The notes below the pieces were generated by a model that did not search any database, was not told the DNA's origin, and saw nothing but the letters and a program-made list of their open reading frames with translations. The position numbers and the translations under genes were made by a program. A DNA stretch of 41,739 nt from Nitrospirota bacterium (GTDB lineage: Bacteria; Nitrospirota; Thermodesulfovibrionia; Thermodesulfovibrionales; UBA1546): assembly GCA_016195565.1 (NCBI GenBank), contig JACPZK010000016.1:1-41739 (forward strand), read 5' to 3'. Within the stretch, counting starts at the first letter, position 1, and every line of letters starts with the position of its first letter. Shown piece after piece: positions 2,611-22,774 of the stretch.

Positions 2611-2655
2611 ATGTCATTCCTCTGTCATATCCATGTAACATCAATCCCTTAGAAT
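2611..2655 (+). promoter_or_regulatory. Pho box and -10 upstream of small Cys protein
   Basis: Three 7-mers with 11-bp phasing: ATGTCAT (2611), CTGTCAT (2622) and ATGTAAC (2633). The -10-like TAGAAT (2650-2655) begins exactly 10 nt after the last repeat. This is the geometry of a PhoB-activated promoter, in which the box replaces the -35 element. The predicted start near 2662 leaves a short leader containing AAGGAGGG before the ATG at 2685. Confidence 0.75.
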
Positions 2656-2684: not shown

Positions 2685-2897
2685 ATGATATGCAAACACC
2701 TGCAGCAGTTCAGCATGCCTGAGACAGTATGGCGCATTGAGTCATGCGCAGTAAACGACAGGCCTTATAATCCCAACATCACTGAGCTAAACAATTTCTG
2801 CAAAGGCGAACAGAATAAGGGATGCCCTGTACTATTAAGGAGAGAATCAGCATTTGAAGGCAGCGGCCTTTTATTAGCAAGCTGCACAGCGGTATAG
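2685..2897 (+). CDS. Small Cys-rich protein (family B, copy 1)
   Basis: Unrecognised 70-aa protein with an excellent Shine-Dalgarno (AAGGAGGG) seven bases before the ATG and a Pho-type promoter just upstream, so it is probably expressed under phosphate limitation. It shares a pattern with the 68-aa protein at 11725-11931: I-C-x-H-L-Q near the N terminus, then C, (D/N)(D/K)xPYxP, EL, a further C, and a final K-x-CP. Four to five Cys residues suggest metal binding or a redox role, but no function is known to me. No signal peptide or membrane segment is visible. It sits just upstream of the EAL-GGDEF and GH1 genes and may be the first gene of that transcript. Confidence 0.7.
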   Translation: MICKHLQQFSMPETVWRIESCAVNDRPYNPNITELNNFCKGEQNKGCPVLLRRESAFEGSGLLLASCTAV

Positions 2898-2915: not shown

Positions 2916-4772
2916 ATGACTGTAAGATCAAAATGGGAAATAACCATAGACGATGAAAACTGTGTCTCTGAAAAGAAAAACAGTCTGAACGAAATAGGCG
3001 GGGATGCAATACTCGAACTCCTTGACGGCAATTTGCTCACCACCCACTTCCAGCCTGTCTTCTCCGCAAAGGACGGAGCTGTTTACGGTTATGAAGCATT
3101 GACGCGGATAAAGGGCGATAAAGGCGCTATCAACATTGGAGATTTGTTCAAAAAAGCGATATTGACGAACACTATCTCCTCCCTCGATGTCTGGTGCAGG
3201 GAAAATGGAATAAGGCTGTCGTCCTCTCTCGGCATAAATCATAACAATGCATACCTGTTCATAAACGTATGTCCCGAGTCATTAATGGACCCTGCCCACA
3301 GCGTCGGGATAACCGACGAGCTCGCAGAGAAATGGGGTATATCAAAGGAGAAAATTATCCTTGAAATAACCGAAGAGAGCGCTATACACAACTACAATTT
3401 ATTCAAGGAGGCCGTTGCATATTACAAGAAGAGGGGCTATAAAATAGCCATAGACGATTTTGGCGCAGGATACGGAGGACTGAAAATGCTCTCTATGATA
3501 GAGCCTGATTTTGTCAAGATAGACCGCTATTTTATATCAAACATAGACAAAGCCACTGTAAAGTTCAATCTTGTGGATTCCATGGCTTCAGCATGCCACA
3601 GGCTCGGCATAAAGGTCATAGCCGAAGGCATAGAACAGGAAGAAGAACTCAAGACCGTAATGAACATGGGGATTGCTCTGCTCCAGGGGTACTACCTTCA
3701 CAAACCCTCCCCTGTTCTCAATGGTGATAGGGCGCAAATTTCCATGCTGCACAATAAAAGCGCAAGCTGCTGTATGCAAAACGACGAGTTGTGTTTCATC
3801 GGAGACATTGCACATAACATAACGCCCATCCATCCATCGGGAGATATCTGGTCTGCATTCAACAGGTTTGTTGAAGACCCTGCAATCAGGGTAATACCTG
3901 TTGTTGACGATTCGAGAATAGTCGGTATACTTCACAGAAACAGGTTTTTGGAGAACAGTATCCTCGGCAACTACGGTTTTGCCATGCATCTGAATGCCAC
4001 AAAACGCATACACGACCTCATGGAACAGCCTTCCATGATAGTAGACGCGAATACTACACTGGAAGACGTGGCACAGAGAATACAATCAAGAAAGTCAGAA
4101 TTCCTTTATGATGATATATGCATAACAAAAAACGGCAAATACCACGGCATGGTGGCAGTCCATATCCTCCTCAATGCAATAACAGAAAGAAGCCTTATCC
4201 TTGCAAGGAATGCAAACCCCCTCTCCGGCCTCCCCGGGAATGAATCGATACAGCGAGAAATAAACAAAAGGATTTCCCAGAATATGCACTTTGATGTCTG
4301 CTACATAGACATCAACAATTTCAAGCCGTATAACGACCACTACGGTTTTGAAAAGGGAGATACGGTCATAAAAACGCTATCATGTATAATTGAAGACTCG
4401 CTAAAACCCGAGGACTTCGACTCCAGCTTCGCAGGGCATATAGGAGGAGATGACTTTATAGTTATCATGCCTCCTCAGATATCCCTCCCTGTATGCGAAA
4501 AGATAATCTCCAGCTTTGAGTCCACGCTTCCTGTACTGCATGATACAGAGGATCACGGCAAAGGTTATTATATCTCAAAGAACAGAAGAGATGAGAAAGA
4601 GACATTCAACCTGCTTTCTATCTCCATAGGAATCGTCAGCGCAGAAGTCCATAAAATCAAATCTTTTGCCCAGCTTGCATCAATAGCAACAGAGGTAAAG
4701 AAGGCTGCAAAGGTGCAGTCTGCCTCAGGTAAGGGTTCATCCATCGTGAGGGACAGAAGGCTTATGGAATGA
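2916..4772 (+). CDS. EAL-CBS-GGDEF c-di-GMP signalling protein
   Basis: A 618-aa soluble protein with an unusual domain order. The EAL phosphodiesterase domain (about residues 36-265) retains the signature YEALTRI (EAL at 60-62), EITEES, AIDDFGAGY and AEGIE, all expected in an active c-di-GMP hydrolase. A CBS-type segment (about 290-440) follows. The C-terminal GGDEF domain (about 445-610) reads GGDDF at 510-514, a conservative change, so cyclase activity or GTP-sensing is possible. No Shine-Dalgarno is obvious at the ATG, which follows the previous small gene by 18 nt; coupling is likely. The stop overlaps the GH1 start as ATGA. It lies downstream of a Pho box, which would link c-di-GMP turnover to phosphate supply. 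Confidence 0.85.
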   Translation: MTVRSKWEITIDDENCVSEKKNSLNEIGGDAILELLDGNLLTTHFQPVFSAKDGAVYGYEALTRIKGDKGAINIGDLFKKAILTNTISSLDVWCRENGIRLSSSLGINHNNAYLFINVCPESLMDPAHSVGITDELAEKWGISKEKIILEITEESAIHNYNLFKEAVAYYKKRGYKIAIDDFGAGYGGLKMLSMIEPDFVKIDRYFISNIDKATVKFNLVDSMASACHRLGIKVIAEGIEQEEELKTVMNMGIALLQGYYLHKPSPVLNGDRAQISMLHNKSASCCMQNDELCFIGDIAHNITPIHPSGDIWSAFNRFVEDPAIRVIPVVDDSRIVGILHRNRFLENSILGNYGFAMHLNATKRIHDLMEQPSMIVDANTTLEDVAQRIQSRKSEFLYDDICITKNGKYHGMVAVHILLNAITERSLILARNANPLSGLPGNESIQREINKRISQNMHFDVCYIDINNFKPYNDHYGFEKGDTVIKTLSCIIEDSLKPEDFDSSFAGHIGGDDFIVIMPPQISLPVCEKIISSFESTLPVLHDTEDHGKGYYISKNRRDEKETFNLLSISIGIVSAEVHKIKSFAQLASIATEVKKAAKVQSASGKGSSIVRDRRLME

Positions 4773-5995
4773 GTTTTCTATGGGGTGTTGCAACGTCGGC
4801 CTTCCAGCTTGAAGGCTCTCCGTACGCAGACTGGGCATCGTGGGATGAAATACTTAGTGAAAAGCCTGATGTCACAGACCATTACAACCTCTATAAAAAG
4901 GACCTGGCCTTATTAAAAGATATTGGCGTGAATGCCTATAGGTTTTCTGTTGAATGGAGCAGGATACAGCCGAAGGAAAATATCTGGGATGATGAGGCTA
5001 TTGCGCATTATCAGGAGGTCATCGACATACTCAGGAGCGATAATATCGAGCCGATGGTTACCCTTCACCACTTTACCCATCCGCTCTGGTTCATAAAAAA
5101 ATATCCGTGGCATGAGGATGTATCCATTGAGAAGTTTCTGGCCTTCTCAGAAAAGATAGTCTCAAGGTTAAAGGGAGTGCGGTATTGGATAACCTTTAAT
5201 GAACCATATGTGCTTATTCTCGCCGGTTACTTTGAGGGATGTACGCCGCCAGGGCTCAGGAATGTCCCGTTAGGGGTGAAGGCATTAAAAAATATTCTGG
5301 CCTGCCATGGGAAGGTATATGACCTTATTCATTCCAAAATACCTGATTCAATGGTAAGCATCGCACATAATATGGCTGCACTTGCGCCGTGGAACAGGTG
5401 GAATCCTCTGGACAAGCTTCTCTCCATGATTGCAAAGCACTTTTATAATCACTCCCTTTTAGATGCATTTATCACCGGCACTCTCAGTGTAAAACTTCCA
5501 TTTAAGAAAGCAGTGGAAATTCCTGTTCCCATAAAGGGCAAGCTGGATTTCTTCGGTGTGAATTATTACACAAGGATTCACATGAGGTTCAATCCTTTCA
5601 AAAAGATGGGGGTCGAAATGAGGCACAGGGATATTGACGGCTATGGACTTACGGATATGGGATGGGAGGTACATCCCCGCGGTCTTGAAAAGGTTTTGAG
5701 GTATGCGTCAAAACTCAATGTTCCCTTAATAATAACAGAGAACGGCATTGCGACCAGGGACTGCCAGAGGAAGATAAAATTCATGAAACGCCATGTAGAC
5801 GTGCTCGAAAAGTGCATTAAGGACGGTATCGACGTGAGGGGATACTTCTACTGGTCGCTTATAGACAATTACGAATGGCTTCAGGGCCTTGATGCACGTT
5901 TTGGACTTTACAAAGTTGATTTTAATACTCTGGAACGTAAACCGACCAATGCAGCTGCTTATTATTCATATCTGATAAAAAGCAGAAGTTTTTAA
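4769..5995 (+). CDS. Glycoside hydrolase family 1 (beta-glycosidase)
   Basis: A 408-aa family 1 glycoside hydrolase, somewhat shorter than typical members (about 440-470 aa). It has the N-terminal LWGVATSAFQLEG barrel motif, the acid/base glutamate E145 in TFNEP and the nucleophile E324 in ITENG. The C-terminal YFYWSLIDNYEWLQG motif is also present. There is no signal peptide, so it is cytoplasmic and would hydrolyse a beta-glycoside or glycolipid-derived sugar; the substrate cannot be read from sequence. The start overlaps the EAL-GGDEF stop by four bases (ATGA), indicating coupled translation in the same Pho-controlled transcript. A Pho box for the next gene begins within its last codons (5990). 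Confidence 0.9.
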   Translation: MSFLWGVATSAFQLEGSPYADWASWDEILSEKPDVTDHYNLYKKDLALLKDIGVNAYRFSVEWSRIQPKENIWDDEAIAHYQEVIDILRSDNIEPMVTLHHFTHPLWFIKKYPWHEDVSIEKFLAFSEKIVSRLKGVRYWITFNEPYVLILAGYFEGCTPPGLRNVPLGVKALKNILACHGKVYDLIHSKIPDSMVSIAHNMAALAPWNRWNPLDKLLSMIAKHFYNHSLLDAFITGTLSVKLPFKKAVEIPVPIKGKLDFFGVNYYTRIHMRFNPFKKMGVEMRHRDIDGYGLTDMGWEVHPRGLEKVLRYASKLNVPLIITENGIATRDCQRKIKFMKRHVDVLEKCIKDGIDVRGYFYWSLIDNYEWLQGLDARFGLYKVDFNTLERKPTNAAAYYSYLIKSRSF

Positions 5996-6045
5996 CCTGA
6001 TTTTAACCTTCCCTTAATACTCCTGTAACTACAAAAACCTATACT
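5990..6045 (+). promoter_or_regulatory. Pho box and -10 of the PHP gene
   Basis: Four 7-mers at 11-bp phasing: TTTTAAC (5990), TTTTAAC (6001), CCTTAAT (6012) and CTGTAAC (6023). The -10 TATACT (6040-6045) starts exactly 10 nt after the last repeat. The start codon of the PHP gene at 6054 is only 8 nt beyond the -10, so the transcript would be leaderless or nearly so. Confidence 0.8.
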
Positions 6046-6053
6046 TAATAGTA

Positions 6054-6743
6054 ATGTTACTGTGTGATTTCCATATCCACACAAAATACTCTGACGGATC
6101 GGTGGAGTTGGGAAGGGTTGTCGACCTCTATGGGCAGGCCGGGTTCGATGTCATCTCCATAACAGACCATGTGGTTAACGGGGACAATCCCATCGGAAAG
6201 CTCGCCCATCGTTTTAGATTATCTGTTACAGCAGAAAATTTTGACGAATACATAGCCAATGTAAAATACGAGGCAGAAAGGGCATGGAGCAAGTATGAAA
6301 TGCTTGTAGTCCCTGGCGTGGAAATCAGCAAAAACTACATTACTCCTGAAAAATCAGCCCATATCCTTATCATCGACATAAAAGAGTTTATCCCTGCCTG
6401 CCTGAACTATGAAAAGATATTCCTTGAGGCAAAACAGCAGGACACACTGATAGTAGCCTGCCATCCACATTACCTTTCGGAATTCGGCAGGGACACCCTT
6501 TTTCTCTGGAACAACAGGGACAAATACGCCAAATACATAGATGCGTGGGAAATAGCCAACAGGGATGACGTGTTCAACGTCATAAGCCTCAAGAAATATC
6601 CCTATATTGCCAGCAGTGATTTTCATAGGACGCGACACCTGTATTCGTGGAAGACTCTCCTGAACTGCGAAAAAAATACGGGGTCGGTAAAACAATGCAT
6701 AAGGCATAACAAAGGAGTAGCTATAACATTATTCAGGAATTAG
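6054..6743 (+). CDS. PHP-domain phosphoesterase
   Basis: A 229-aa protein made of a single PHP metal-dependent phosphoesterase domain. Visible metal-binding motifs are FHIHTKYSDG (H7, H9, D14), ITDH, the E of PGVEIS, CHPH and SSDFHR. The N terminus is already inside the first motif, so translation must begin here. There is no Shine-Dalgarno, and the -10 box lies 8 nt upstream. A strong four-repeat Pho box points to induction by phosphate starvation, fitting a role in releasing phosphate from an organic ester. The next gene is a GT21-like glycosyltransferase, so a phospholipid-to-glycolipid swap is an attractive inference. The substrate is unknown; histidinol-phosphatase or a nucleotide phosphatase are alternatives. 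Confidence 0.8.
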   Translation: MLLCDFHIHTKYSDGSVELGRVVDLYGQAGFDVISITDHVVNGDNPIGKLAHRFRLSVTAENFDEYIANVKYEAERAWSKYEMLVVPGVEISKNYITPEKSAHILIIDIKEFIPACLNYEKIFLEAKQQDTLIVACHPHYLSEFGRDTLFLWNNRDKYAKYIDAWEIANRDDVFNVISLKKYPYIASSDFHRTRHLYSWKTLLNCEKNTGSVKQCIRHNKGVAITLFRN

Positions 6744-6766
6744 AAAGATGAGAAATACCTTTATAA

Positions 6767-6830
6767 GTCATTCCTGCAAAAGCAGGAATCCAGAGAAAAA
6801 CTACTGGATTCCCGTTTTCACGGGAATGAC
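6767..6830. repeat. Dispersed palindromic repeat (TGTCATTCC type), copy 1
   Basis: Begins GTCATTCCTGC and ends CGGGAATGAC, with nested inverted pairs (CCTGCAAAAGCAGG, then CCCGTTTTCACGGG). This is a small dispersed palindromic repeat in the gap between the PHP gene and the glycosyltransferase. Related copies lie near 18721, 22587 and 33721. Confidence 0.75.
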
Positions 6831-6860
6831 AGAAAGATTGCGTAAAAGGAGGAATTCGTA

Positions 6861-8153
6861 ATGGAAATATTCTATGTTTTTGCCGGCATAACAATTTTTG
6901 GACTTATATGTTATGGATTGCAAATATGGGCAGTGCGCTCAACGCTAAAAGAAGATAAGAAGGTAAGAGGTTCAGAAGATGGGAATGCTTCAACCTCTCA
7001 ACTTTTTAACTTCTCATCTTCTCAATTTCAGTTTCCTCCTGTCTCGATCCTCAAGCCCCTAAAGGGCCTTGATGACAATCTGTTCGATAATCTTGCAAGC
7101 TTCTGCGCACAGGATTATCCAGAATACGAAATTATATTTTCGCTTCAAGACCACAATGACCCTGCTTTTAAAGTAGTAAGAAAAATAAGGGATAAATATC
7201 CTGAAAAAGATATTTCCGTCATAGTAGAAAGATGCGATCTGGGATTAAACCCGAAGGTCAATAATCTCATCCCGGCATATAAGGCATCAAAATACGAATT
7301 AATCCTCATAAGCGACAGCAATGTGATGGTTGGTAATAATTACCTGAAGGCTATCACTAAACACATGCAAGACCCGGATGTAGGCCTTGTAAGCAACATG
7401 ATAAGAGGAATAGGAGGCCGCACCATCGGATCAATACTGGAAAATCTGCATCTAAACTCCTTCATAGCAGGAAGCGTATGCTTCCTCGACAAATTTCTGA
7501 AGATGCCGTGCGTAATTGGAAAATCCATGCTTATGAGGAAAAGAGACCTTGAAGTCATCAGTGGATTTAAGGCTGTAAAAGATGTCCTTGCAGAGGATTA
7601 TGTCATAGGCAAAAGGATGCATGGAATCGGGAAGAAAGTTGTGCTTTCGAATTATGCAGTTAATAATGTCAATGAATACTGGGGGATCAGAAGATTCATT
7701 AACAGGCATACAAGATGGGGGAAACTCAGATGGAGGCTTGGAGGAATAAAATATCTCTCCGAACTCATCGGAAATCCGGTATTCATGGCCTCTTTACCGG
7801 TATTGCTGTGGGAGCCATCAAAAATAACCATATCATTTGCTCTCCTTGTGAGTTTCCTCAAAGTCCTTGGTGATTCTTATCTTGGCACCCTGATATATGA
7901 CACAGAAAATCGGAGAAGCGGAGAATCACCCATTCACCCATTCACCCACTCACCCATTCACTACTTACTATCGCCCATTAAAGACATTATAATCGGGTTT
8001 ATATGGTTTGTCCCGATTCTGAGCAATACAGTTGTCTGGAGGGGAAGCAGATACATAATCGGCAGGAATTCCGTCCTATCTCCCATGCCTGAAAGCAATA
8101 TATGGGCTTGGAGATACAGGGTTGCAGACGCTATTAAGGCAAGGCTCGCATGA
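6861..8153 (+). CDS. GT21-like (ceramide glucosyltransferase/HpnI-type) glycosyltransferase
   Basis: A 430-aa membrane glycosyltransferase resembling the ceramide glucosyltransferase/HpnI group. There is an N-terminal membrane anchor (residues 3-24), PVSILKPLKG, the nucleotide-sugar Asp motif ISDSN, AEDYVIGKRM, and the RHTRWGKLRW version of the family (Q/R)xxRW motif. C-terminal hydrophobic segments follow. The family adds sugar to a lipid acceptor at the membrane. A good Shine-Dalgarno (AAAGGAGGAA) precedes the ATG. It probably belongs to the Pho-controlled PHP transcript, fitting glycolipid synthesis when phosphate is scarce. Two in-frame low-complexity insertions are present: one after the anchor (about residues 34-57) and one near residues 351-367. 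The stop codon lies in the loop of a terminator hairpin. Confidence 0.8.
   Translation: MEIFYVFAGITIFGLICYGLQIWAVRSTLKEDKKVRGSEDGNASTSQLFNFSSSQFQFPPVSILKPLKGLDDNLFDNLASFCAQDYPEYEIIFSLQDHNDPAFKVVRKIRDKYPEKDISVIVERCDLGLNPKVNNLIPAYKASKYELILISDSNVMVGNNYLKAITKHMQDPDVGLVSNMIRGIGGRTIGSILENLHLNSFIAGSVCFLDKFLKMPCVIGKSMLMRKRDLEVISGFKAVKDVLAEDYVIGKRMHGIGKKVVLSNYAVNNVNEYWGIRRFINRHTRWGKLRWRLGGIKYLSELIGNPVFMASLPVLLWEPSKITISFALLVSFLKVLGDSYLGTLIYDTENRRSGESPIHPFTHSPIHYLLSPIKDIIIGFIWFVPILSNTVVWRGSRYIIGRNSVLSPMPESNIWAWRYRVADAIKARLA
6961..7031 (+). repeat. In-frame low-complexity insertion in glycosyltransferase (N-terminal)
   Basis: Repetitive CAACCTCTCAACTTTTTAAC / CTTCTCATCTTCTCAATTTC DNA preceded by its rough complement (AGAGGTTCAGAAGATGGGA). 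It encodes a Ser/Phe/Gln-rich stretch between the membrane anchor and the first conserved catalytic motif. The frame stays open; edges are approximate. Confidence 0.55.
7927..7961 (+). repeat. In-frame tandem 8-mer repeat in glycosyltransferase (C-terminal)
   Basis: Four to five imperfect copies of the 8-mer CACCCATT in tandem, translated as SPIHPFTHSPIH. The period (8) is not a multiple of three, so copy-number change would shift the frame. That makes this a potential phase-variation site in the last quarter of the gene. Confidence 0.7.
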
Positions 8154-8181
8154 TTTGGGGAAACCCGAGCCTGATTTTTTT
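8142..8181 (+). terminator. Rho-independent terminator after glycosyltransferase
   Basis: Stem AGGCTCG (8142-8148) pairs with CGAGCCT (8166-8172), followed by GA and a run of seven T. The stop codon (8151-8153) lies within the loop. Confidence 0.7.
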
Positions 8182-8219
8182 ATAAACCTGCGGCATTTCA
8201 TTAAGCATAAGGGGGGAAT

Positions 8220-8396
8220 ATGAAATGTATAGCCTGCGGAAGAGAGATGTTAAACAAAGGGACCCATCTTGAGTGCCCTAACATCCTTTGTGATTACGAA
8301 GAAGAAATCGCAATTAAGGAAGTGGAGATATTGGCAAGGCCTCAAAAGCAGGCCTCGTATGACACAACTTTATATACATCTTCATCAGTAACCTGA
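8220..8396 (+). CDS. Small zinc-ribbon-like protein, 58 aa
   Basis: A short ORF starting MKCIACGREM, preceded by a purine-rich GGGGGGAATA ribosome site. Cys residues at 3, 6, 19 and 24 form a CxxC...C...C pattern like a small zinc ribbon. The C-terminal half has no recognisable feature. It lies between the glycosyltransferase terminator and the psiE promoter region. No convincing Pho box was found directly before it. The function is unknown; the Cys spacing, start site and open frame are the only evidence that it is real. Confidence 0.55.
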   Translation: MKCIACGREMLNKGTHLECPNILCDYEEEIAIKEVEILARPQKQASYDTTLYTSSSVT

Positions 8397-8407
8397 TCAC
8401 GACACTG

Positions 8408-8662
8408 ATGGAGCATTGTAAAATTGTGCATGACGGACCTTACAGAGGCGGGATATGGAGTCGCAAACTGAGGAATCTCTTCCAAAAATGGTTACGACGC
8501 CCGGCAATAAATCTTCTCAGCAGCGCCGCTTTACCCGAGTATCCCTCTTTTTATCTTGAATTCCTGCGTGGTTGTGATTCCGGAAATACACAATGCAGGG
8601 GATGGGATGAAATATACAGAAAATGCGGGAAAGAGAAACCTCAAACAGTAGTGCGAAAGTAA
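8408..8662 (+). CDS. Hypothetical 84-aa ORF, doubtful
   Basis: Open frame of 84 codons following the 58-aa zinc-ribbon ORF by 11 nt. No Shine-Dalgarno is visible before the ATG. The product is basic, with a C-terminal region containing two Cys in CDSGNTQC and a further RKC. No family is recognised. It is kept because it fills an otherwise empty 300-bp interval on the coding strand of its neighbours, but it may be chance. Confidence 0.3.
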   Translation: MEHCKIVHDGPYRGGIWSRKLRNLFQKWLRRPAINLLSSAALPEYPSFYLEFLRGCDSGNTQCRGWDEIYRKCGKEKPQTVVRK

Positions 8663-8691
8663 ACTGAAAATTTCATGCAATTGAAATAATG

Positions 8692-8734
8692 CTGTAACCT
8701 TCATTCATTATCATAATCATAACATCAGCATAAC
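8692..8734 (+). promoter_or_regulatory. Possible second Pho-box-like array upstream of psiE
   Basis: CTGTAAC at 8692 is followed, out of phase, by CATTATC (8706), TCATAAC (8717) and GCATAAC (8728) spaced 11 bp apart. No good -10 sits 10 nt downstream, unlike the other boxes. It may be an auxiliary PhoB site for psiE or chance. Confidence 0.35.
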
Positions 8735-8781
8735 GCCGGGGGAGTTGCTTATGAATAAGATTCAAAAAGAGAAACGAGTTA

Positions 8782-8826
8782 TTTTAACTTCTGTTTAATA
8801 AACCAATAACATCCGGAGCTTATAAT
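8782..8826 (+). promoter_or_regulatory. Pho box and consensus -10 of psiE
   Basis: TTTTAAC (8782), GTTTAAT (8793) and CAATAAC (8804) at 11-bp phasing, with a perfect TATAAT (8821-8826) starting 10 nt after the last repeat. The psiE ATG follows 5 nt later (8832), so the transcript should be leaderless. Confidence 0.75.
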
Positions 8827-8831
8827 CACAC

Positions 8832-9251
8832 ATGCGATTGTTCAAAAAGATTGTGGACATAATCATCAAGCTGATGATACCCCTTGTAATACTTGCCCTT
8901 ATGATTGGTATTGCAAGGATATTTCTCGATTTGAGAGTGGTTTTTAAAAGCCCGACAATAGCGGCAGGGTTCGACATCATGATAACGAATATACTGTCCA
9001 TGTTTATCGTTGTAGAGCTTCTAAGGAGCATCATCGAATATTTCGAGATACATAGACTGCGGATAACATTTATCACAGATGCCGCTTTGGTCTTCATTTT
9101 GAGGGAGGTCATGGTCGGTATTTATCAGCACAAAATGAATGCTGTTGAAATAGGTTCCCTTGCCATACTGCTTCTTGTAATCGGTGTCGTAAGAACACTG
9201 GCTATCGTGTATTCACCAAGTAAAACAAAGGAGGTAACAAACCATGAATAA
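8832..9251 (+). CDS. psiE: PsiE-like phosphate-starvation membrane protein
   Basis: A 139-aa integral membrane protein of the PsiE (phosphate-starvation-inducible E) family. Four hydrophobic segments are visible (about residues 9-30, 48-67, 78-97 and 103-125) with conserved ELLRSIIEYF and ILREVMVGIY motifs between them. In Escherichia coli psiE is a Pho regulon member of unclear biochemical role, and here a Pho box with consensus TATAAT lies immediately upstream. The ATG is only 5 nt after the -10, with no Shine-Dalgarno, so initiation on a leaderless message is inferred. Its last codons overlap the next small ORF by 8 nt; a GGAGG for that ORF lies within its 3' end. Confidence 0.8.
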   Translation: MRLFKKIVDIIIKLMIPLVILALMIGIARIFLDLRVVFKSPTIAAGFDIMITNILSMFIVVELLRSIIEYFEIHRLRITFITDAALVFILREVMVGIYQHKMNAVEIGSLAILLLVIGVVRTLAIVYSPSKTKEVTNHE

Positions 9252-9339: not shown

Positions 9340-9395
9340 TTTTCACTTAGATTTAACAATTCGGTCATACTGCTGTAACATCTCTGCGGTACGCT
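9340..9395 (+). promoter_or_regulatory. Pho box and -10 of the CBS-kinase gene
   Basis: Four 7-mers at 11-bp phasing: TTTTCAC (9340), ATTTAAC (9351), CGGTCAT (9362) and CTGTAAC (9373). The -10-like TACGCT (9390-9395) begins 10 nt after the last repeat. Confidence 0.75.
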
Positions 9396-9458: not shown

Positions 9459-10643
9459 ATGGAGACTTCCGAAGTAGAATACAGAACTGTGGGAGCCCTG
9501 ATCGCATCAAATGAATCTATTCAGCCGCAAATCCCTGTAAGCCGCGTTGCAGAAAAATTCTTCAGCATAACTTCTCTCGATGCGATAGCTATAGTTGATG
9601 GCAGGGAGACTATCGGGCTTGTTACGAGGCCGAAACTCCTTTTTACTCTCTTCAAGAGATTCGGTTTCGAACTTTATGGAAGAAAACCAATCATAACGAT
9701 AGCCGATACAAGACCGCTCATAATGCATAAAGATGAGAGACTTGATGTTGCATTAGATAAAGCTCTGGACAGGCCTGTTGAGGATATATACGATGAGATC
9801 ATTGTGATAGACGACACAGATTGTTATAAAGGGCTTTTATCCGTTAAACAGATGGTAATACAGCAAAGTAATGCACTTGCGAACAGTATTGTACAGAGAG
9901 AGATTGCGGGTGCCAAGGTGAAAGAGATTGAGAAGATCGAACGTATAAAATCACAGTTCATCGCAAATGTAACGCATGAGCTTCGCTCTCCGGTAAACGC
10001 CATAATAGGGCTTGCAGAACTCATGAAGATATCCTCAGAAAAGGGCTATGTTGACCAGCTTAAGGACAGGCTTTCCCTGCTTATGTCAAGTGCGACAAAC
10101 CTCAGAGCAATTATCACAAACATCCTCGATCTTTCGAAAATCAAGGCCGGAAAGATGGAGGTCATCAAGGAGCGCTGTGACATACCGGCTATCCTGAGGG
10201 AATCCGCGGAAACAACCCGCATCTTGCTCGCCAACAAACCTGTTGATGTGGATGTGATCACTCACGTGGACCCTTTGTATATCGTATCCGATCCGCTCAA
10301 GATCAGACAGATATTGACCAACCTTCTGAGCAATGCATCGAAATTTACGGAGAAAGGGAGGATAGCTCTCACACTGCAGATGGAGGCTGACGGAATAAAG
10401 ATAACTGTGAGTGATACAGGAATCGGTATAAAGGAAGAGGATATGGACAAGCTCTTTTCGGCATTCAGTCAATTGGAGGATGCGAAGACCAAGAGGCATG
10501 AGGGGACAGGACTTGGATTGACCATAACTAAGAACCTATTGAATATGTTAGGGGGCGGTATCTCGGTTGCAAGCGTATATGGAAAGGGGACTACATTTGA
10601 GGTTTATTTACCTTTAAACAATCTTGAGAAGGAGGAATCATAA
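9459..10643 (+). CDS. Soluble CBS-type hybrid-input histidine kinase
   Basis: A 394-aa cytoplasmic histidine kinase without membrane segments. An N-terminal CBS-like sensor (about residues 1-135) leads through a short helix to HisKA, with phospho-acceptor H173 in VTHELRSPV. HATPase follows with N box (LLSNASKFT), G1 (VSDTGIGI) and G2 (GTGLGLTITKNLL). The sensor resembles the segment between EAL and GGDEF in the protein at 2916-4772, including the linker leading into the output domain. A good Shine-Dalgarno (GAAAGGAGGGG) and a four-repeat Pho box precede it. The stop abuts the start of the receiver protein directly. Ligand unknown; CBS modules often bind adenine nucleotides, so an energy or nucleotide signal is inferred. 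Confidence 0.85.
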   Translation: METSEVEYRTVGALIASNESIQPQIPVSRVAEKFFSITSLDAIAIVDGRETIGLVTRPKLLFTLFKRFGFELYGRKPIITIADTRPLIMHKDERLDVALDKALDRPVEDIYDEIIVIDDTDCYKGLLSVKQMVIQQSNALANSIVQREIAGAKVKEIEKIERIKSQFIANVTHELRSPVNAIIGLAELMKISSEKGYVDQLKDRLSLLMSSATNLRAIITNILDLSKIKAGKMEVIKERCDIPAILRESAETTRILLANKPVDVDVITHVDPLYIVSDPLKIRQILTNLLSNASKFTEKGRIALTLQMEADGIKITVSDTGIGIKEEDMDKLFSAFSQLEDAKTKRHEGTGLGLTITKNLLNMLGGGISVASVYGKGTTFEVYLPLNNLEKEES

Positions 10644-11039
10644 ATGAAAAAGAAGATATTGATTATCGATGATGACGTAAAACATCTCATTACAACAAGG
10701 GAAATTCTTGAGGAAGAAGGATACGAGGTGATAACCCACCAAAATGCCTTTGGAGCTACTAATCTCATTGGATCTATCCAGCCAGACATGGTCTTACTTG
10801 ATATCAATATGCCTGCCCTCTCTGGCGACAGGCTTTCTGGATTGCTCCTTTCGAAGCACAAGACCAAGGATGTGCCCATTGTTTTTTATTCATCCAATGA
10901 TGAGGACAGCATTAGGAAGGCTGTATCAGAGCATGGAGTTAAAGGTTATATCTGTAAGGGTGATATCTTTGAGCTGAAGAAAAAGGTTGCGTATTACCTG
11001 AGCCAAAACGGACAAAAAGAAAAATTAACGGCGGTTTAA
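10644..11039 (+). CDS. Receiver-only response regulator
   Basis: A 131-aa stand-alone receiver domain with acidic residues D9-D11, phospho-acceptor D53 in VLLDINMP, the S/T position in FYSS and the conserved K in YICKGD. There is no output domain, as in CheY- or Spo0F-like proteins, so it probably acts by protein contact or as a phosphorelay intermediate. It starts one base after the kinase stop codon, with AAGGAGG inside the kinase 3' end, so the two are translated together. The next Pho box overlaps the end of this gene (11023-11040). The target is not evident; the PhoR/PhoB pair or the c-di-GMP enzyme are conceivable. Confidence 0.85.
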   Translation: MKKKILIIDDDVKHLITTREILEEEGYEVITHQNAFGATNLIGSIQPDMVLLDINMPALSGDRLSGLLLSKHKTKDVPIVFYSSNDEDSIRKAVSEHGVKGYICKGDIFELKKKVAYYLSQNGQKEKLTAV

Positions 11040-11067
11040 TAACCCTGTAACATTTTTCTACTATGCT
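11023..11067 (+). promoter_or_regulatory. Pho box and -10 of the small Cys protein cluster
   Basis: AATTAAC (11023), GTTTAAT (11034) and CTGTAAC (11045) at 11-bp phasing, with TATGCT (11062-11067) 10 nt after the last repeat. Two of the three repeats lie inside the end of the receiver gene. Confidence 0.75.
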
Positions 11068-11113
11068 ATAAATATAAATTTGATAAACCTTAAAAGAAAG
11101 AGAGGTGAGAATC

Positions 11114-11290
11114 ATGTGTCCTAAATTTAAAAACGGCGAGTGCGAGGTAGTAAATCTCGAGCCCGACCATGTTATTAAATGTGGTGCAGACAGAAACTCC
11201 TGCTATAAGAGCGATGAGTATGAGATATGCAAGCTCTACATGGTTGAACGAATACTGGACTTAGAGAATTCATTGAAGGCCGCAGCATGA
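11114..11290 (+). CDS. Small Cys-rich protein (family A, copy 1)
   Basis: A 58-aa protein starting MCPKFKNGECEVV. The ATG at 11114 is chosen because AGAGGTGAG just upstream is a good ribosome site; an upstream GTG at 11105 lies within that site. It is a clear paralogue of the protein at 11531-11713. Both share MCPK(F/I)(K/R)N, CE(V/I)V, L-x-P(D/E)H, two internal Cys and YE-x-CKLY followed by an E. Five Cys in 58 residues suggest binding of a metal ion or a cluster. No named family is recognised. First gene after a Pho box and thus probably induced by phosphate limitation. Confidence 0.7.
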   Translation: MCPKFKNGECEVVNLEPDHVIKCGADRNSCYKSDEYEICKLYMVERILDLENSLKAAA

Positions 11291-11329
11291 AAGAAGATAA
11301 AAGAAGAACTTAACTTGAAAGGAGGCTTT

Positions 11330-11527
11330 ATGAATGCATTTGCCGACATATCCGGAATCCACGAGGAAAAAGAGATGACCTGCCCGCATTGCAACAGCGA
11401 AAGGGCTGTATGCATGGCATCCATCTCATCAATGAGATTAGGGATTGTGGAGAGGCTCGTTTACTGCAACAATGAGAATCATGATAACTGTCCAATCTTT
11501 CTGGCGAAGGTTTTAAGGGGGAGGTAA
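11330..11527 (+). CDS. Small CxxC protein, 65 aa
   Basis: A 65-aa protein starting MNAFADISGI, with a strong ribosome site (TTGAAAGGAGGC) ending just before the ATG at 11330. A CPHC motif near residue 18 and later Cys residues in VYC and NCPIF make a CxxC...C...C arrangement like a treble-clef or zinc-ribbon fold. The C-terminal C-P-I-F resembles the CP ending of the family B proteins here. It lies between two family A paralogues, with 39 nt upstream and 3 nt downstream, so it is in the same transcript. No function is recognised. Confidence 0.65.
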   Translation: MNAFADISGIHEEKEMTCPHCNSERAVCMASISSMRLGIVERLVYCNNENHDNCPIFLAKVLRGR

Positions 11528-11530
11528 TAC

Positions 11531-11713
11531 ATGTGCCCCAAGATAAGAAACTGTATATGTGAGATTGTTGGGTTAAACCCCGAGCATATCGAGTGTGCGG
11601 AGAAAGGTAAGTGTTTTGGGAGAACTTACGAATACTGCAAGCTTTATATTGCAGAGTACTTCGCAAACTATCAGGGTCCGACAATAGAGTATAGAAAAAT
11701 TGCATGGACATAA
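11531..11713 (+). CDS. Small Cys-rich protein (family A, copy 2)
   Basis: A 60-aa paralogue of the protein at 11114-11290: MCPKIRNCICEIV, L-x-PEH, C-x5-C and YEYCKLYIAEYF. Six Cys are present. The ribosome site GGGGGAGG lies in the end of the previous gene, 3 nt away, so translation is coupled. A repeat of the same family within 0.4 kb indicates local duplication followed by strong divergence. That argues for selection on the Cys framework rather than a chance ORF. Function unknown. Confidence 0.7.
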   Translation: MCPKIRNCICEIVGLNPEHIECAEKGKCFGRTYEYCKLYIAEYFANYQGPTIEYRKIAWT

Positions 11714-11724
11714 TGGAAGGCTAA

Positions 11725-11931
11725 ATGATGCAACCCAAAAGCAAACTAATTTGTCCACATTTACAGAAATGGGTTATCCCGACATGCAGGGCATTAGATA
11801 AACCATATGTCCCGAGTCTGTTTGAGCTTGAAGAATACTGCAATACCAAAGGCCATAGGAAGTGCCCATTCTGTTTACCGGGGGATAATCAAAATAAAGA
11901 GTACAACAGCCTGTTTCAGCTTAGGCAATAA
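11725..11931 (+). CDS. Small Cys-rich protein (family B, copy 2)
   Basis: A 68-aa protein matching the one at 2685-2897: LICPHLQKW, then C, DKPYVPSLFELEEYC and KCPFC. GGAAGG precedes the ATG (a second ATG follows at 11728). Conserved between copies are the C-x-HL pair, the (D/K)xPYxP tract, EL and the CP motif. This suggests a defined small fold with Cys/His metal ligands. It is the last gene of the Pho-controlled small-protein cluster. The next Pho box begins 12 bases after its stop codon. Confidence 0.7.
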   Translation: MMQPKSKLICPHLQKWVIPTCRALDKPYVPSLFELEEYCNTKGHRKCPFCLPGDNQNKEYNSLFQLRQ

Positions 11932-11942
11932 CCTTCTTGAAA

Positions 11943-11987
11943 AAGTAACATCCCCGTAATATTGCTGTAACATTGAATTGTTAGACT
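11943..11987 (+). promoter_or_regulatory. Pho box and -10 upstream of pstS
   Basis: AAGTAAC (11943), CCGTAAT (11954) and CTGTAAC (11965) at 11-bp phasing, with TAGACT (11982-11987) 10 nt after the last repeat. The predicted transcription start coincides with an ATG at 11994. Confidence 0.75.
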
Positions 11988-11993
11988 TTATTA

Positions 11994-12143
11994 ATGTTGA
12001 TTGTTTTATTAAGTCTAATACTTGCTGTAGGAGTTGTAATTTTGCTTATGGAGAGTAGACCTAACCTTTTTGTATTTCAACTTATAGAGAAGATCTTTGG
12101 CAGCAAAGGGAAGGCAGGTGATAAACCGGATAATAAGAGGTAA
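11994..12143 (+). CDS. 49-aa membrane peptide or leader ahead of pstS
   Basis: An open frame of 49 codons between the Pho promoter and pstS. The first 19 residues (MLIVLLSLILAVGVVILLM) form a single hydrophobic segment, followed by a basic tail. The ATG lies 6 nt after the -10 hexamer, at the predicted transcription start, so it would be translated as a leaderless message. It could be a genuine membrane miniprotein or a leader ORF affecting pstS expression. The pstS start is 68 nt beyond its stop codon. No homologue is known to me. Confidence 0.45.
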   Translation: MLIVLLSLILAVGVVILLMESRPNLFVFQLIEKIFGSKGKAGDKPDNKR

Positions 12144-12211: not shown

Positions 12212-13219
12212 ATGTTTAAAAAGTTTGTTCTGAGTATGATTGCCATAATAATTATGGCAACGGTTAATGTAGTTGTCGCAGGCGCAGATGACAAAATTAT
12301 CAAGATCGACGGTTCAAGCACGGTCTATCCGATAACAGAGGCGGTTGCAGAAGAGTTCCAGAAAGCAAAGAAAGGCGCTGTTAAGGTTACAGTCGGCATT
12401 TCAGGAACAGGAGGCGGTTTTAAGAAGTTCTGCAGGGGAGAAACAGATATATCAGACGCATCAAGGCCGATACTCAAGAAGGAAATAGATGTATGCAAGC
12501 AGCAGGGAATCGAATATGTTGAGCTTCCTGTTGCCTATGATGGGCTTGCAGTGATAGTTAATCCTAAAAACACATGGGTAAAATCTTTCACAGTTGCGGA
12601 CCTCAAGAAGATGTGGGAACCTGCTGCACAGAGTAAAATCAAAAAATGGAATCAGGTAAGCGCTGAATGGCCTGATGCACAGTTAAATTTATTTGGCCCA
12701 GGCGCTGACTCAGGCACATTCGATTATTTCACAGAGGCGATTGTCGGGAAATCCAAGTCATCCCGCGGGGACTTCACGGCGAGCGAAGACGATAACGTGC
12801 TCGTGCAGGGAATAGCTGGCGACAAGAATGCCCTCGGATATTTTGGTCTTGCCTACTACGAGGAAAACAAGAACAAGCTTAAGGTCGTGCCGATTATCAA
12901 CCCCGCGACCAGCAAGGCAGTCCTTCCATCGCTTCAGACCGTCATGGACGGCACCTACGCGCCCCTCTCGAGGCCTCTCTTCATCTATGTAAACAAAAAA
13001 TCGGTCGATAAACCGGAGGTGAAGGAGTTCGTCGATTACTACATCAAGAACGCACCGAAGCTCACGAAGCAGGTAGGGTACGTGCCTCTTCCGGCCAATG
13101 CCTACAAGCTTGCCACAGAGCGCTTTACCAAACTGAAGACAGGGAGCATGTTCGGCGGCGAGGAGAAGGTAGGGATGAAGATCGAGGAATTACTTAAGCT
13201 GGAAGAGACAAAGAAATAG
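12212..13219 (+). CDS. pstS: Phosphate ABC transporter substrate-binding protein
   Basis: Periplasmic phosphate-binding protein of 335 aa. A signal peptide (about residues 1-23, ending VVVAGA) precedes the mature domain. The phosphate-binding loops are typical of Pst[29 protein letters not shown] and [10 protein letters not shown]. It feeds the PstC-PstA-PstB importer encoded downstream. A strong Shine-Dalgarno (AAAAGGAGG) precedes the ATG. The gene has its own Pho promoter and a terminator after it, so it can be expressed separately and more highly than the permease genes. From roughly position 12750 onward it uses more GC-rich synonymous codons (ATC, CTC, GTC, CCG) than its first half or its neighbours, possibly a mosaic origin. 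Confidence 0.95.
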
Positions 13220-13234
13220 AATACTTTAAGAGGA

Positions 13235-13265
13235 AAAGGCGTGGCAAACAAACCACGCCTTTTTT
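13235..13265 (+). terminator. Rho-independent terminator after pstS
   Basis: Stem AGGCGTGG (13238-13245 region) pairs with CCACGCCT (ending 13260), followed by a run of T. It separates pstS from the promoter of pstC. Confidence 0.85.
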
Positions 13266-13282
13266 ATGCCATAAATTAGGCT

Positions 13283-13338
13283 TTTTAACATTTCTGTAAC
13301 ATTTCTGTAACACAGTTGTAACATTAAATATGGAAAAT
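13283..13338 (+). promoter_or_regulatory. Four-repeat Pho box and -10 of pstC
   Basis: The clearest array in the window: TTTTAAC (13283), CTGTAAC (13294), CTGTAAC (13305) and TTGTAAC (13316), all 11 bp apart. The -10-like GAAAAT (13333-13338) begins 10 nt after the last repeat. Confidence 0.85.
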
Positions 13339-13389
13339 ATCTATGTATTGCTTTTAACTGCTCGAATTGATATATAGGTAATAGGGACT

Positions 13390-14280
13390 ATGAAGAAAGC
13401 TTTAGGGAAAAGAATAAAAGAAGGAATAATAGAAACAACTCTGTTTCTAAGCGCCCTCTCGTCTGTATTCATCACTATCAGCATTGTAGCTGTTCTGTCT
13501 TACGAGTCATTCGGATTTTTTAAAGAAGTTCCATTGATAGAATTTCTTACCGGAAAAGAGTGGACTCCATTGTTTGCAGAGCCGAAGTTCGGCATCCTTC
13601 CGTTGATTTCAGGAACGCTTTTAACTACATCCATAGCGCTCATAGTTGCGCTGCCATTAGGATTGACTGTTGCTGTCTATTTGAGCGAATATGCGCCGCA
13701 CAGGTTAAAAGAGGTCATAAAACCGATTCTTGAGCTTCTGGCCGCAGTGCCTACAGTAGTGTACGGCTATTTTGCCTTGCTGTTTTTAACCCCGATACTT
13801 CAGAAATTTATCCCTGACCTTTCAGGATTCAATGCGTTGAGTCCAGGAATAATCATGGGGATAATGATAATCCCGTACGTAAGTTCTGTCAGCGAAGACG
13901 CAATGAGGGCAGTCCCGATGCACATCAGAGAAGGTTCTTATGCGATGGGCGCAACGAAACTTCAGACCGCATTTAAGGTTGTAATACCGTCAGCATTCTC
14001 AGGTATAGCTGCTGCATTTATCATCGGAATCTCAAGGGCTATCGGTGAAACAATGGTTGTTGCAATAGCAGCCGGAGGTATGCCTAACCTCACAGCAAAC
14101 CCTCTGGAGCCTGTCCAGACCCTGACTGCTTACATTGTTGCGGTAAGCCTTGGGGATGTTCCGCATGGCACTATCGAATATAAAACCATATTCGCTGTCG
14201 GCATAACGCTTTTTTTGATAACACTTGTCTTTAACATAATAGGCTTCTGGTTCAGGAAAAGGATACGGGAAGTTTACTAA
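13390..14280 (+). CDS. pstC: Phosphate ABC transporter permease PstC
   Basis: A 296-aa inner-membrane permease of the PstC family with about six membrane segments. It carries the coupling-loop region EDAMRAVPMHIREGSYAMG, and ISRAIGETMVVAIAAGG, both typical of PstC/PstA. It forms the translocation channel with PstA, energised by PstB. The ribosome site is modest (AGGTAATAGGG). The upstream promoter is a four-repeat Pho box. PstA follows after 36 nt. Confidence 0.92.
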   Translation: MKKALGKRIKEGIIETTLFLSALSSVFITISIVAVLSYESFGFFKEVPLIEFLTGKEWTPLFAEPKFGILPLISGTLLTTSIALIVALPLGLTVAVYLSEYAPHRLKEVIKPILELLAAVPTVVYGYFALLFLTPILQKFIPDLSGFNALSPGIIMGIMIIPYVSSVSEDAMRAVPMHIREGSYAMGATKLQTAFKVVIPSAFSGIAAAFIIGISRAIGETMVVAIAAGGMPNLTANPLEPVQTLTAYIVAVSLGDVPHGTIEYKTIFAVGITLFLITLVFNIIGFWFRKRIREVY

Positions 14281-14316
14281 AAATGAAAAATTCAAATTTT
14301 ATTTATAAATTTACTT

Positions 14317-15225
14317 ATGGAAGATATTAAAAAACGGATAGCATTTATAAAATTCTGGAATGGGATGTTTATGATAGTGGGGCTTCTGTCCACCTTTGTA
14401 GGACTCGTCCTTCTTTTTACGCTCATGGCAGACTTGATGATAGACGGATTCCCCCGTCTGAGCTATAGATTTTTCACCTCATTTCCTTCAAGGTTCCCAG
14501 CTGAGGCAGGGATACTCTCTGCATGGGTGGGAAGCTTTCTGCTGCTGCTTGTTACAGCATCCGCTGCAATCCCCCTTGGGGTAGCTGCAGGAATTTATCT
14601 CGAGGAGTATGCAGGGAAAAACTGGCTTACGGATATTATCGAAATCAATATCGCAAATCTCGCAGGGGTGCCTTCAATAGTTTATGGACTTCTCGCGCTG
14701 GGGTTGTTTGTTTATTTCTTTAAATTCGGCGAAAGCACTCTTACAGGAGGGCTTGCGCTTGCTCTTTTGATTCTTCCAATGGTAATAATGGCGACAAGGG
14801 AAGCCATAAGGGCAATCCCTAACTCAATAAGAGAGGCATCTTACGCACTCGGCGCCACTAAATGGCAGACCGTTCAGTCCCATATAATTCCATATTCAAC
14901 AGGCGGAATCCTGACCGGTATTATAATTGGGCTTTCCAGGGCGATAGGCGAAACTGCTCCGATAATAACAGTAGGCGCTCTCACATTCATTGCCTTTCTT
15001 CCTACGTCGCCGTTTTCTTCGGAATTTCCTTTCATATCATTCAAATGGCTGTTGGACCCCTTCACCGTCATGCCGATACAGATGTTTAACTGGGTATCAA
15101 GGCCGCAGCATGATTTCCAGTTAAATGCAGCGGCTGCAGGAATAGTATTGATGATAATGACATTGCTCATGAACGGGCTTGCAATTTATATAAGATACAG
15201 GTTCAGAAGGAAGATAAAATGGTAA
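14317..15225 (+). CDS. pstA: Phosphate ABC transporter permease PstA
   Basis: A 302-aa inner-membrane permease, the partner of PstC. It has an N-terminal membrane segment, the [14 protein letters not shown] segment, the coupling loop [20 protein letters not shown] and the family [17 protein letters not shown] motif. No Shine-Dalgarno is obvious before the ATG, so the 36-nt spacing from pstC may need re-initiation or a structured leader. Its last seven bases overlap pstB. Confidence 0.92.
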
Positions 15226-15986
15226 AAGAACTAAAAGCAGAGGTCAAAAAACTTAATTTCTACTACGGCAGTGTCCAAGCCCTGAAGGATATTAACCTGC
15301 CGATAGAGCGCAGAAAAGTAAGCGCACTTATCGGGCCTTCAGGCTGCGGAAAGACCACGTTCCTCAGATGTTTTAACCGCATGCACGACCTCTATCCGCA
15401 TAACAGGTATGAGGGCGAGATTACGCTCTATCCTGACAATATCAATATCATTTCTCCTGAGATAGACCCTATTGAGATAAGGATGCAGATAAGCATGGTC
15501 TTTCAGAAACCTAACCCGTTCCCCAAATCAATATATGAAAATGTCGCCTATGGGCTGAGAGTAAGAGGAGCCAGCAAGAGAGCGGTGCTGGATGAGAAAG
15601 TGGAAAAGTCACTGAGAGGCGCTGCGCTCTGGGACGAGGTAAAGGACAGGCTCAATAACCTTGCGTTTGACCTTTCGGGCGGGCAGCAGCAGAGGCTCTG
15701 CATAGCAAGGGCGCTTGCAACTGATCCGAGGATTCTTCTTTTTGACGAGCCTACATCCGCGCTTGACCCCACTGCCACTTCAAAGATAGAAGAGCTTATA
15801 ATACAGCTTAAGGATGAGGTGACCATAATAATAGTAACTCATAATATGCAGCAGGCGGCAAGGGTCTCAGATTATACGGCGTTCATGTATCTTGGAGAGA
15901 TAATAGAGTTTGACAGGACAGACAAGATATTTACTGCTCCTTCAAATAAGCTTACAGAGGAATATATTACAGGAAGGTTCGGATAA
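15219..15986 (+). CDS. pstB: Phosphate ABC transporter ATP-binding protein PstB
   Basis: A 255-aa ABC ATPase of standard PstB length. Walker A is [10 protein letters not shown], the signature LSGGQQQRL, Walker [14 protein letters not shown] and the switch histidine is in VTHNMQQA. It energises phosphate import through PstC-PstA and overlaps pstA by seven bases. A dispersed palindromic repeat follows before phoU. Confidence 0.95.
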
Positions 15987-16005
15987 TGAACTGTTCCTGG
16001 CAGTT

Positions 16006-16074
16006 TGTCATTGCGAGGAACGATAGTGACGAAGCAATCTCAATCGAGATTCCGTCGCTACGCTCGGAATGACA
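16006..16074. repeat. Dispersed palindromic repeat (CATTGCGAGG type)
   Basis: Starts TGTCATTGCGAGGAACGA and ends CGCTCGGAATGACA, with an inner GCAATCTCAATCGAGATT segment. It sits between pstB and phoU and has imperfect inverted ends. Its TGTCATT/AATGACA termini match the TGTCATTCC family; the core resembles the partial element at 33841-33870. Confidence 0.7.
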
Positions 16075-16108
16075 AAAGTGTAATTTATTAGTCCTGTAAG
16101 GAGGTTTC

Positions 16109-16786
16109 ATGGCAACTGTATTTGAAAAAGAACTGACGGATTTAAAGGGAAGAGTATTAAAACTCGGCTCTCTTGTAGAAAAGGCGATAAGCGACTCAAT
16201 AAAATCGCTTGTCGAGAGGGATTCAAAACTTGCGGCTGATGTCATAGACAAAGACCTGCAGGTAAATGCGCTTGATGTTGAAATAGATGAGGAATGCATA
16301 AGGTTGATTGCTCTCAGGCAGCCCCGCGCAGGCGACCTGCGGCTTATAACTACTGCGATGAAGATTACGACCGACCTTGAGAGAATCGGAGACCTCGCTG
16401 TTGATACCTCGGAACGCGCATTGGAGTTAAATGAAGAGCCTCAGTTAAAACCCTATATTGATATCCCGCGCATGGCTGAGATAGCTCAGGGCATGGTAAG
16501 AGATGCCCTTGATGCATTCGTAAAAAGGGATTCTGCGCTGGCAAGGGATGTGCTGACAAGAGATGATATGGTTGATAATCTCAACTGGCAGGTATTTAAT
16601 GAACTTTTATTTTTTATGATACAGGATCCCAAGACCGTTTCCAGGGCCGTGAAGATAACGTATGTATCAAAGTACATAGAAAGGATTGCTGATCACGCAA
16701 CAAACATAGCGGAGATGGTTGTTTATCTTGTTGAGGGTAAGATTATAAGACACATGACAGTATTTGACGATAAAAAGAAGGACTAA
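16109..16786 (+). CDS. phoU: PhoU phosphate-signalling protein
   Basis: A 225-aa helical protein of the PhoU family with the expected two repeats of three helices. The E(I/C)-x-R(L/A) and RIGDLAVD / RIADHATNIAE motifs that bind metal are present in each half. PhoU links the Pst transporter to the PhoR kinase and represses Pho genes when phosphate is plentiful. A strong ribosome site (TAAGGAGGTTT) precedes the ATG. It follows pstB after 122 nt containing a palindromic repeat but no terminator, so it is probably cotranscribed with pstCAB. Confidence 0.95.
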   Translation: MATVFEKELTDLKGRVLKLGSLVEKAISDSIKSLVERDSKLAADVIDKDLQVNALDVEIDEECIRLIALRQPRAGDLRLITTAMKITTDLERIGDLAVDTSERALELNEEPQLKPYIDIPRMAEIAQGMVRDALDAFVKRDSALARDVLTRDDMVDNLNWQVFNELLFFMIQDPKTVSRAVKITYVSKYIERIADHATNIAEMVVYLVEGKIIRHMTVFDDKKKD

Positions 16787-22676: not shown

Positions 22677-22774
22677 TGGCGGGAGCGTGTGGGAATCGAA
22701 CCCACCCTTCCGGTTTGTGGCCGGAAACACCGGCTTTGAAGGCCGGGAGGGACACCAGAACCCTATGCGCTCCC
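22677..22774 (-). tRNA. selC: Selenocysteine tRNA, tRNA-Sec(UCA)
   Basis: Minus-strand gene with long class II features of tRNA-Sec. The acceptor GGGAGCG pairs with CGCTCCC, the anticodon stem CCGGC/GCCGG encloses CTTCAAA (anticodon UCA at 22737-22739), and the variable arm TTCCGGCC...AACCGGAA is long. The T-arm is GTGGGTTCGATTCCCAC, with an encoded discriminator G plus CCA. It reads UGA as selenocysteine with SelB, so the genome should encode SelA/B/D and selenoproteins. None of the intact ORFs here has an obvious in-frame UGA. Confidence 0.93.

What the first reader, a model, noticed from the sequence alone, without database searches (positions are those of the whole stretch)
11114..11931. 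Pho-controlled cluster of tiny Cys-rich proteins from two recurring families
Four consecutive genes of 58-68 aa with five or so Cys each, behind one Pho box. Family A (11114, 11531) shares MCPK-x-(K/R)N...CE-x-V...YE-x-CKLY. Family B (11725, and distant copy 2685) shares C-x-HLQ...PYxP...EL..C...CP. Paralogy with strong divergence but conserved Cys argues for real, metal-binding or redox proteins in phosphate starvation. I know of no such Pho regulon family.
Basis: partly seen in the sequence, partly recalled or inferred. Interest (0 to 1): 0.72.

Follow-up and report, generated by a model that had tools for sequence, protein, structure and literature searches.

The report
Undescribed Cys-rich mini-proteins of phosphate starvation
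A little-studied bacterial phylum makes several undescribed kinds of tiny cysteine-rich protein from switches that look phosphate-starvation controlled; they probably hold a metal ion and work alongside the cell's signalling proteins, and I found no study of any of them.

Summary
Window genes 11114, 11330, 11531 and 11725 (58-68 aa, 5-6 Cys each) and a distant copy at 2685 belong to three Nitrospirota families (A, B, C), not two. The gene at 11330 (C) is a remote homologue of B (hhalign 94%). The Cys are near-invariant (A 30-33/33, B 39-40/40, C 31-32/32), dN/dS is mostly 0.03-0.35, and no Pfam, NCBIfam, PHROGs or PDB match was found.

Most relatives lie in a conserved phosphate island (phoB-phoR, EAL/CBS/GGDEF, GH1-PHP-GT21, CBS-kinase/regulator, pstSCAB-phoU). 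An 11-bp tandem Pho-box motif sits upstream of the cluster and of six other promoters in the window, nowhere else at that strength, and recurs upstream of relatives in other genomes. Pho control is very likely, but inferred.

Outside the island, A and B sit beside NtrC-type regulators, PilZ, STAS or GGDEF proteins, and in two genomes B is fused to a receiver domain. I therefore favour cytoplasmic four/five-Cys metal-binding mini-proteins that modulate companion signalling proteins. Metal and partner are untested; structure predictions were too poor to use. Occurrence outside Nitrospirota could barely be tested.

The parts
11034..11062 (+). Pho box before the cluster (GTTTAATAACCCTGTAAC plus a degenerate third repeat); possible -10 TATAAAT at 11067-11073
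   Evidence: PWM score 19.4, p 1.4e-7; overlaps the end of the upstream regulator gene by 6 bases; the -10 is read from the sequence (inference)
11114..11290 (+). family A copy 1, 58 aa, Cys 2, 10, 23, 30, 39
   Evidence: 28 of 396 genomes of the phylum hold a relative
11330..11527 (+). family C, 65 aa, Cys 18, (21), 28, 46, 54
   Evidence: 55 of 296 genomes; hhalign to family B 94% probability; dN/dS 0.15-0.26 against close relatives
11531..11713 (+). family A copy 2, 60 aa, six Cys
11725..11931 (+). family B, 68 aa, four invariant Cys (C-x10-C-x17-C-x7-C) plus one extra
   Evidence: 93 of 296 genomes; dN/dS 0.19-0.23 against close relatives
2611..2639 (+). Pho box before the distant family B copy
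   Evidence: p 1.2e-8
2685..2897 (+). family B, subfamily with a 7-residue insert, directly before the EAL/CBS/GGDEF gene
   Evidence: same neighbour in L110, L134, L159, L163, L165
9459..10643 (+). histidine kinase of the island
   Evidence: Pho box at 9362-9390
10644..11039 (+). stand-alone receiver protein, directly upstream of the cluster
11994..12143 (+). 49-aa membrane peptide between the cluster and pstS, with its own Pho box (11943-11971)
   Evidence: (90% identical in L125)
12212..16786 (+). pstS, pstC, pstA, pstB, phoU; Pho boxes at 13283-13322 before pstC
2916..9251 (+). rest of the Pho island: EAL-CBS-GGDEF, GH1, PHP, GT21, two small ORFs, PsiE
   Evidence: Pho boxes at 6012 and 8681

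Best explanation
The cluster encodes cytoplasmic mini-proteins made when PhoB is activated by phosphate starvation. Each folds around one metal site (most likely Zn, possibly an Fe-S cluster) held by four or five conserved Cys. They act as accessory modulators of nearby signalling proteins: the CBS-kinase/receiver pair, the EAL/GGDEF protein and possibly PhoR/Pst itself. This would tie the phosphate response to metal or redox state, or give it feedback. Shown here: real conserved genes, Cys conservation, island synteny, Pho-box-like sites, fusion to receiver domains. Inferred: PhoB control, the metal, the partner, the effect on signalling.
For: Cys near-invariant in all three families, and no transmembrane stretch (best 19-aa hydropathy below 1.6 in all 105 sequences), so the Cys are probably reduced and able to bind metal. 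Island context: 23 of 29 A loci, 35 of 45 B and 29 of 37 C loci hold pst, phoB/R or island genes on the fetched stretch, about 8 kb each side where the contig allows. C co-occurs with the island PHP gene (38 genomes both, 17 C only, 16 PHP only, 225 neither; Fisher p 4e-22, not corrected for ancestry). Pho boxes upstream of A/B/C genes in other genomes: 1.12 per kb against 0.16 per kb in the same loci overall. Scattered C genes with no island gene on the fetched stretch still carry strong boxes (L142, L143, L153). Signalling link: B fused N-terminally to a receiver domain in L164 and L172; A or B beside NtrC-type regulators (L005, L116, L118, L131, L156, L157), PilZ (L005), STAS (L116), GGDEF (L133); 15 of 31 non-island B loci have a receiver domain within 2.5 kb, about 15% expected from receiver density.
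Against: No metal, expression or interaction data. AlphaFold2 gave pLDDT 52 (B) and 45 (A), so the Cys-site geometry is unverified. Family A is not demonstrably homologous to B/C (hhalign 8-20%). Family C genes outside the island are not beside two-component genes. Operon neighbours need not be physical partners, and several non-island B loci are from related genomes.
Confidence: 0.42

Rival explanations
1. They are small metal stores or buffers: when phosphate and polyphosphate run low, freed Zn or Fe is bound by Cys-rich mini-proteins, with no signalling role.
For: 4-6 Cys in about 60 aa, Pho-box-like control, several paralogues side by side.
Against: Only one metal site's worth of Cys, unlike metallothioneins; many non-Cys residues are conserved (YxPSxFEL..YC, AGIEPE, YDNCPIFL); homologues fused to receiver domains and placed beside regulators.
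Confidence: 0.17
2. They are thiol redox proteins or redox sensors whose Cys form disulfides in a phosphate-linked stress response.
For: Conserved Cys; anaerobic lifestyle is likely for these Nitrospirota (inference).
Against: No shared CxxC pair (C21 is in only 16 of 32 C members); none of the 20 neighbouring proteins scanned against Pfam was a thioredoxin or glutaredoxin.
Confidence: 0.13
3. They are zinc-finger-like regulators or inhibitors acting on RNA polymerase, ribosome or DNA rather than on signalling proteins, like anti-TRAP or DksA/TraR-type small proteins in mode of action.
For: Size and Cys number; one weak C-family hit to anti-TRAP RtpA (E 0.07) and one to the FmdB zinc ribbon (E 0.02), the latter well below its cut-off.
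Against: No profile match passes a curated cut-off, and receiver-domain fusions fit better with signalling.
Confidence: 0.16
4. They assist the lipid- or sugar-modifying genes of the island (GH1, PHP, GT21), e.g. as a subunit or chaperone of the glycosyltransferase.
For: C often lies directly after GT21 (L121, L136, L137, L145, L147-L149, L151, L152) and co-occurs with PHP.
Against: A and B are often far from GT21, and B is common without the island (59 genomes with B but no PHP).
Confidence: 0.12

Closest known systems
Pho regulon (PhoB/PhoR, pst, phoU; E. coli Pho boxes as mapped in PMC10294691)
   Same: 11-bp tandem direct repeats (matrix consensus CTTTCATAATCCTGTAAC here; E. coli phoA TGTCATAAAGTTGTCACG) before pst and accessory genes; linked phoB-phoR and pst-phoU
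   Different: no described Pho regulon that I know of holds small Cys4/5 protein families; the second half-site is CTGTAAC
Small bacterial zinc-ribbon proteins (FmdB/CxxC_CxxC_SSSS TIGR02605, anti-TRAP, TraR/DksA type)
   Same: about 60 aa, four conserved Cys, cytoplasmic (TraR/DksA and anti-TRAP from my own knowledge)
   Different: no score above a curated cut-off; Cys spacing C-x10-C-x17-C-x7-C lacks paired CxxC knuckles
Small accessory proteins of two-component systems (a kind, not a family)
   Same: short, made next to kinase/regulator genes; here also fused to receiver domains
   Different: no sequence match to a known one; partner not tested

Membership tests
Pho regulon | Pho box (tandem repeats at 11-bp spacing) in the promoter | tested here: met
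   nine window hits with p below 5e-6, all before island genes
Pho regulon | genomic linkage to pho/pst genes across genomes | tested here: met
Pho regulon | PhoB binding and induction at low phosphate | not testable with these tools
   needs DNA-binding or expression data
FmdB-type zinc ribbon (TIGR02605) | score above the curated cut-off (31.3 bits) | tested here: not met
   15.0 bits for 11330 only
FmdB-type zinc ribbon (TIGR02605) | two CxxC pairs | tested here: not met
   alignments and counts
any Pfam, NCBIfam, PHROGs family or solved structure | significant profile match | tested here: not met
   Pfam for A and B members and the window C protein, NCBIfam for window proteins and all C members, PHROGs for window proteins, PDB sequences for all three profiles
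families B and C as one superfamily | profile-profile homology with Cys in register | tested here: met
   94%, 55 columns; family B profile hits the window C gene at E 0.004
family A in that superfamily | profile-profile homology | tested here: inconclusive
   8% and 20%, only the last Cys-Cys-Tyr segment
metal-binding Cys4 protein | bound metal at the Cys | not testable with these tools
   Cys invariance only; models too poor

The most novel reading that the evidence does not exclude
A phylum-wide, undescribed class of metal- or redox-responsive mini-proteins that plug into two-component and c-di-GMP proteins, with a dedicated PhoB-controlled branch that couples phosphate starvation to metal or redox state.
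Probability: 0.28. Interest if true: 0.75.

Novelty: new variant of a known kind. Interest (0 to 1): 0.55.

Why it matters
Phosphate starvation is one of the best-mapped bacterial responses, yet here a whole phylum seems to add several unnamed protein families to it, short enough to be easily overlooked. If they bind metal and modulate signalling, they would link phosphate sensing to metal or redox state. The alignments, Pho-box matrix and gene-order map make this directly testable.

Tried and rejected
Single-protein genome-contig scan with family A: no confirmed relative. AlphaFold2 models were too weak (pLDDT 52, 45), so no fold search was run. Plasmid tblastn with B and C: no match. A search centred on another phylum was not possible. 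PhoU as a co-occurrence marker is uninformative because 269 of 296 genomes have it; the PHP gene was used instead. Literature searches found no paper on these proteins. Rejected: chance ORFs (dN/dS, synteny) and secreted or membrane proteins (hydropathy).

Full report
What is there. It carries phoB-phoR, an EAL-CBS-GGDEF protein, GH1, PHP and GT21 genes, psiE, a histidine kinase with a stand-alone receiver, four mini-genes at 11114-11931, a 49-aa membrane peptide, pstSCAB and phoU. The four mini-genes and the copy at 2685 have no match above cut-off in Pfam, NCBIfam, PHROGs or PDB sequences.

Families. Profiles of A, B and C found relatives in 28 of 396, 93 of 296 and 55 of 296 genomes of the phylum. 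Alignments of 33 A, 40 B and 32 C proteins show near-invariant Cys: A 33, 33, 30, 32, 33 of 33; B 40, 40, 40, 39 of 40; C 32, 31, 32, 32 of 32. B reads CPHL-x(n)-C-x-A-x(4)-Y-x-PS-x-FEL-x-EYC-x(7)-CPFY; C reads CPY-x(n)-IC-x-AS-x(n)-YC-x(7)-CPIFL-x-K-x-LR; A reads MCPKF-x(4)-C-E-x-AGIEPE-x(3)-C-x(n)-C-x(n)-E-x-CKLY. B and C are homologous (94%); A is not demonstrably so. This genome has three A, two B and one C gene; five of the six are in the window. Selection keeps the proteins: dN/dS is 0.35 or less for 15 of 17 pairs, and the two outliers, 0.47 and 0.68, have dS below 0.1.

Pho context. Gene-order maps put most relatives in the same island. Loci with pst/phoU, island genes or phoB/R at set identity thresholds: A 23 of 29, B 35 of 45, C 29 of 37. 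All but one of the A places found were fetched, and two weak ones and one duplicate sequence were left out of the count, so the A figure is nearly unselected; the B and C loci fetched were mostly the best-scoring ones and are biased towards island members. C and the island PHP gene co-occur (38 both, 17 C only, 16 PHP only, 225 neither), without correction for ancestry.

Pho boxes. CTGTAAYNNNNCTGTAAY with up to 3 mismatches occurs 26 times against 8.9 expected, and CTGTAAC 18 times against 2.5. A matrix built from sites in other genomes (first picked with a consensus suggested by the window, so only partly independent) gives nine window hits with p below 5e-6, all on the + strand before island genes: 2622, 6012, 8681, 9362, 11034, 11954, 13283, 13294, 13305. 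A site lies within 300 bp upstream of 19 of 27 A, 17 of 37 B and 14 of 29 C genes in Pho loci, window included; several genes share one site, and sites used for training are included. The consensus test without a matrix gives 1.12 against 0.16 per kb. The layout fits the direct-repeat Pho boxes of E. coli (PMC10294691).

Signalling link. Two B proteins run directly into a receiver domain (L164, L172). The third A copy of this genome lies between a PilZ gene and a phosphate-type binding protein, downstream of an NtrC-type regulator. Other non-island A or B loci adjoin NtrC-type regulators, STAS or GGDEF proteins. Part of that locus set was chosen for long open frames.

Mechanism. Cytoplasmic location, one metal site's worth of invariant Cys, companionship with signalling genes and PhoB-type promoters together favour a metal-bound modulator of signalling, at about 0.42. 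The metal, the partner and PhoB dependence are inferred. The structure predictions did not help.

Limits. Occurrence outside Nitrospirota is almost untested: two scans of genome contigs with short motifs and two plasmid searches. The paper search found nothing on these proteins, but the library lacks most subscription journals.

Noticed in passing
window 4769-8153: GH1, PHP and GT21 (HpnI-like) genes travel together in the Pho island of many Nitrospirota, with a Pho box at 6012; they look like a phosphate-starvation glycolipid pathway in which GH1 might act as a transglycosidase (compare plant SFR2, from my own knowledge) and PHP as a lipid phosphoesterase.
   Followed up: partly
window 2916-4772 and 9459-10643: The EAL-CBS-GGDEF protein and the histidine kinase seem to share a CBS-type sensor region: the EAL-CBS-GGDEF query also hits the kinase region of L006 and L096 at 43% identity.
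   Followed up: no
L164:1281-1841 and L172:4667-5236: Family B module fused to the N-terminus of a receiver domain.
   Followed up: yes
G000:C17:102772-102948 (L005:6773-6949): Third family A copy between a PilZ gene and a PstS-like binding protein, near an NtrC-type regulator; no Pho box within 300 bp.
   Followed up: partly
window 11994-12143: 49-aa conserved membrane peptide (90% identical in L125) between the cluster and pstS, with its own strong Pho box.
   Followed up: no
window 8220-8662: Two more small ORFs (58 aa with CxxC, 84 aa) between GT21 and psiE, without family match.
   Followed up: no
window 22677-22774: Predicted tRNA-Sec gene, so the genome may use selenocysteine.
   Followed up: no
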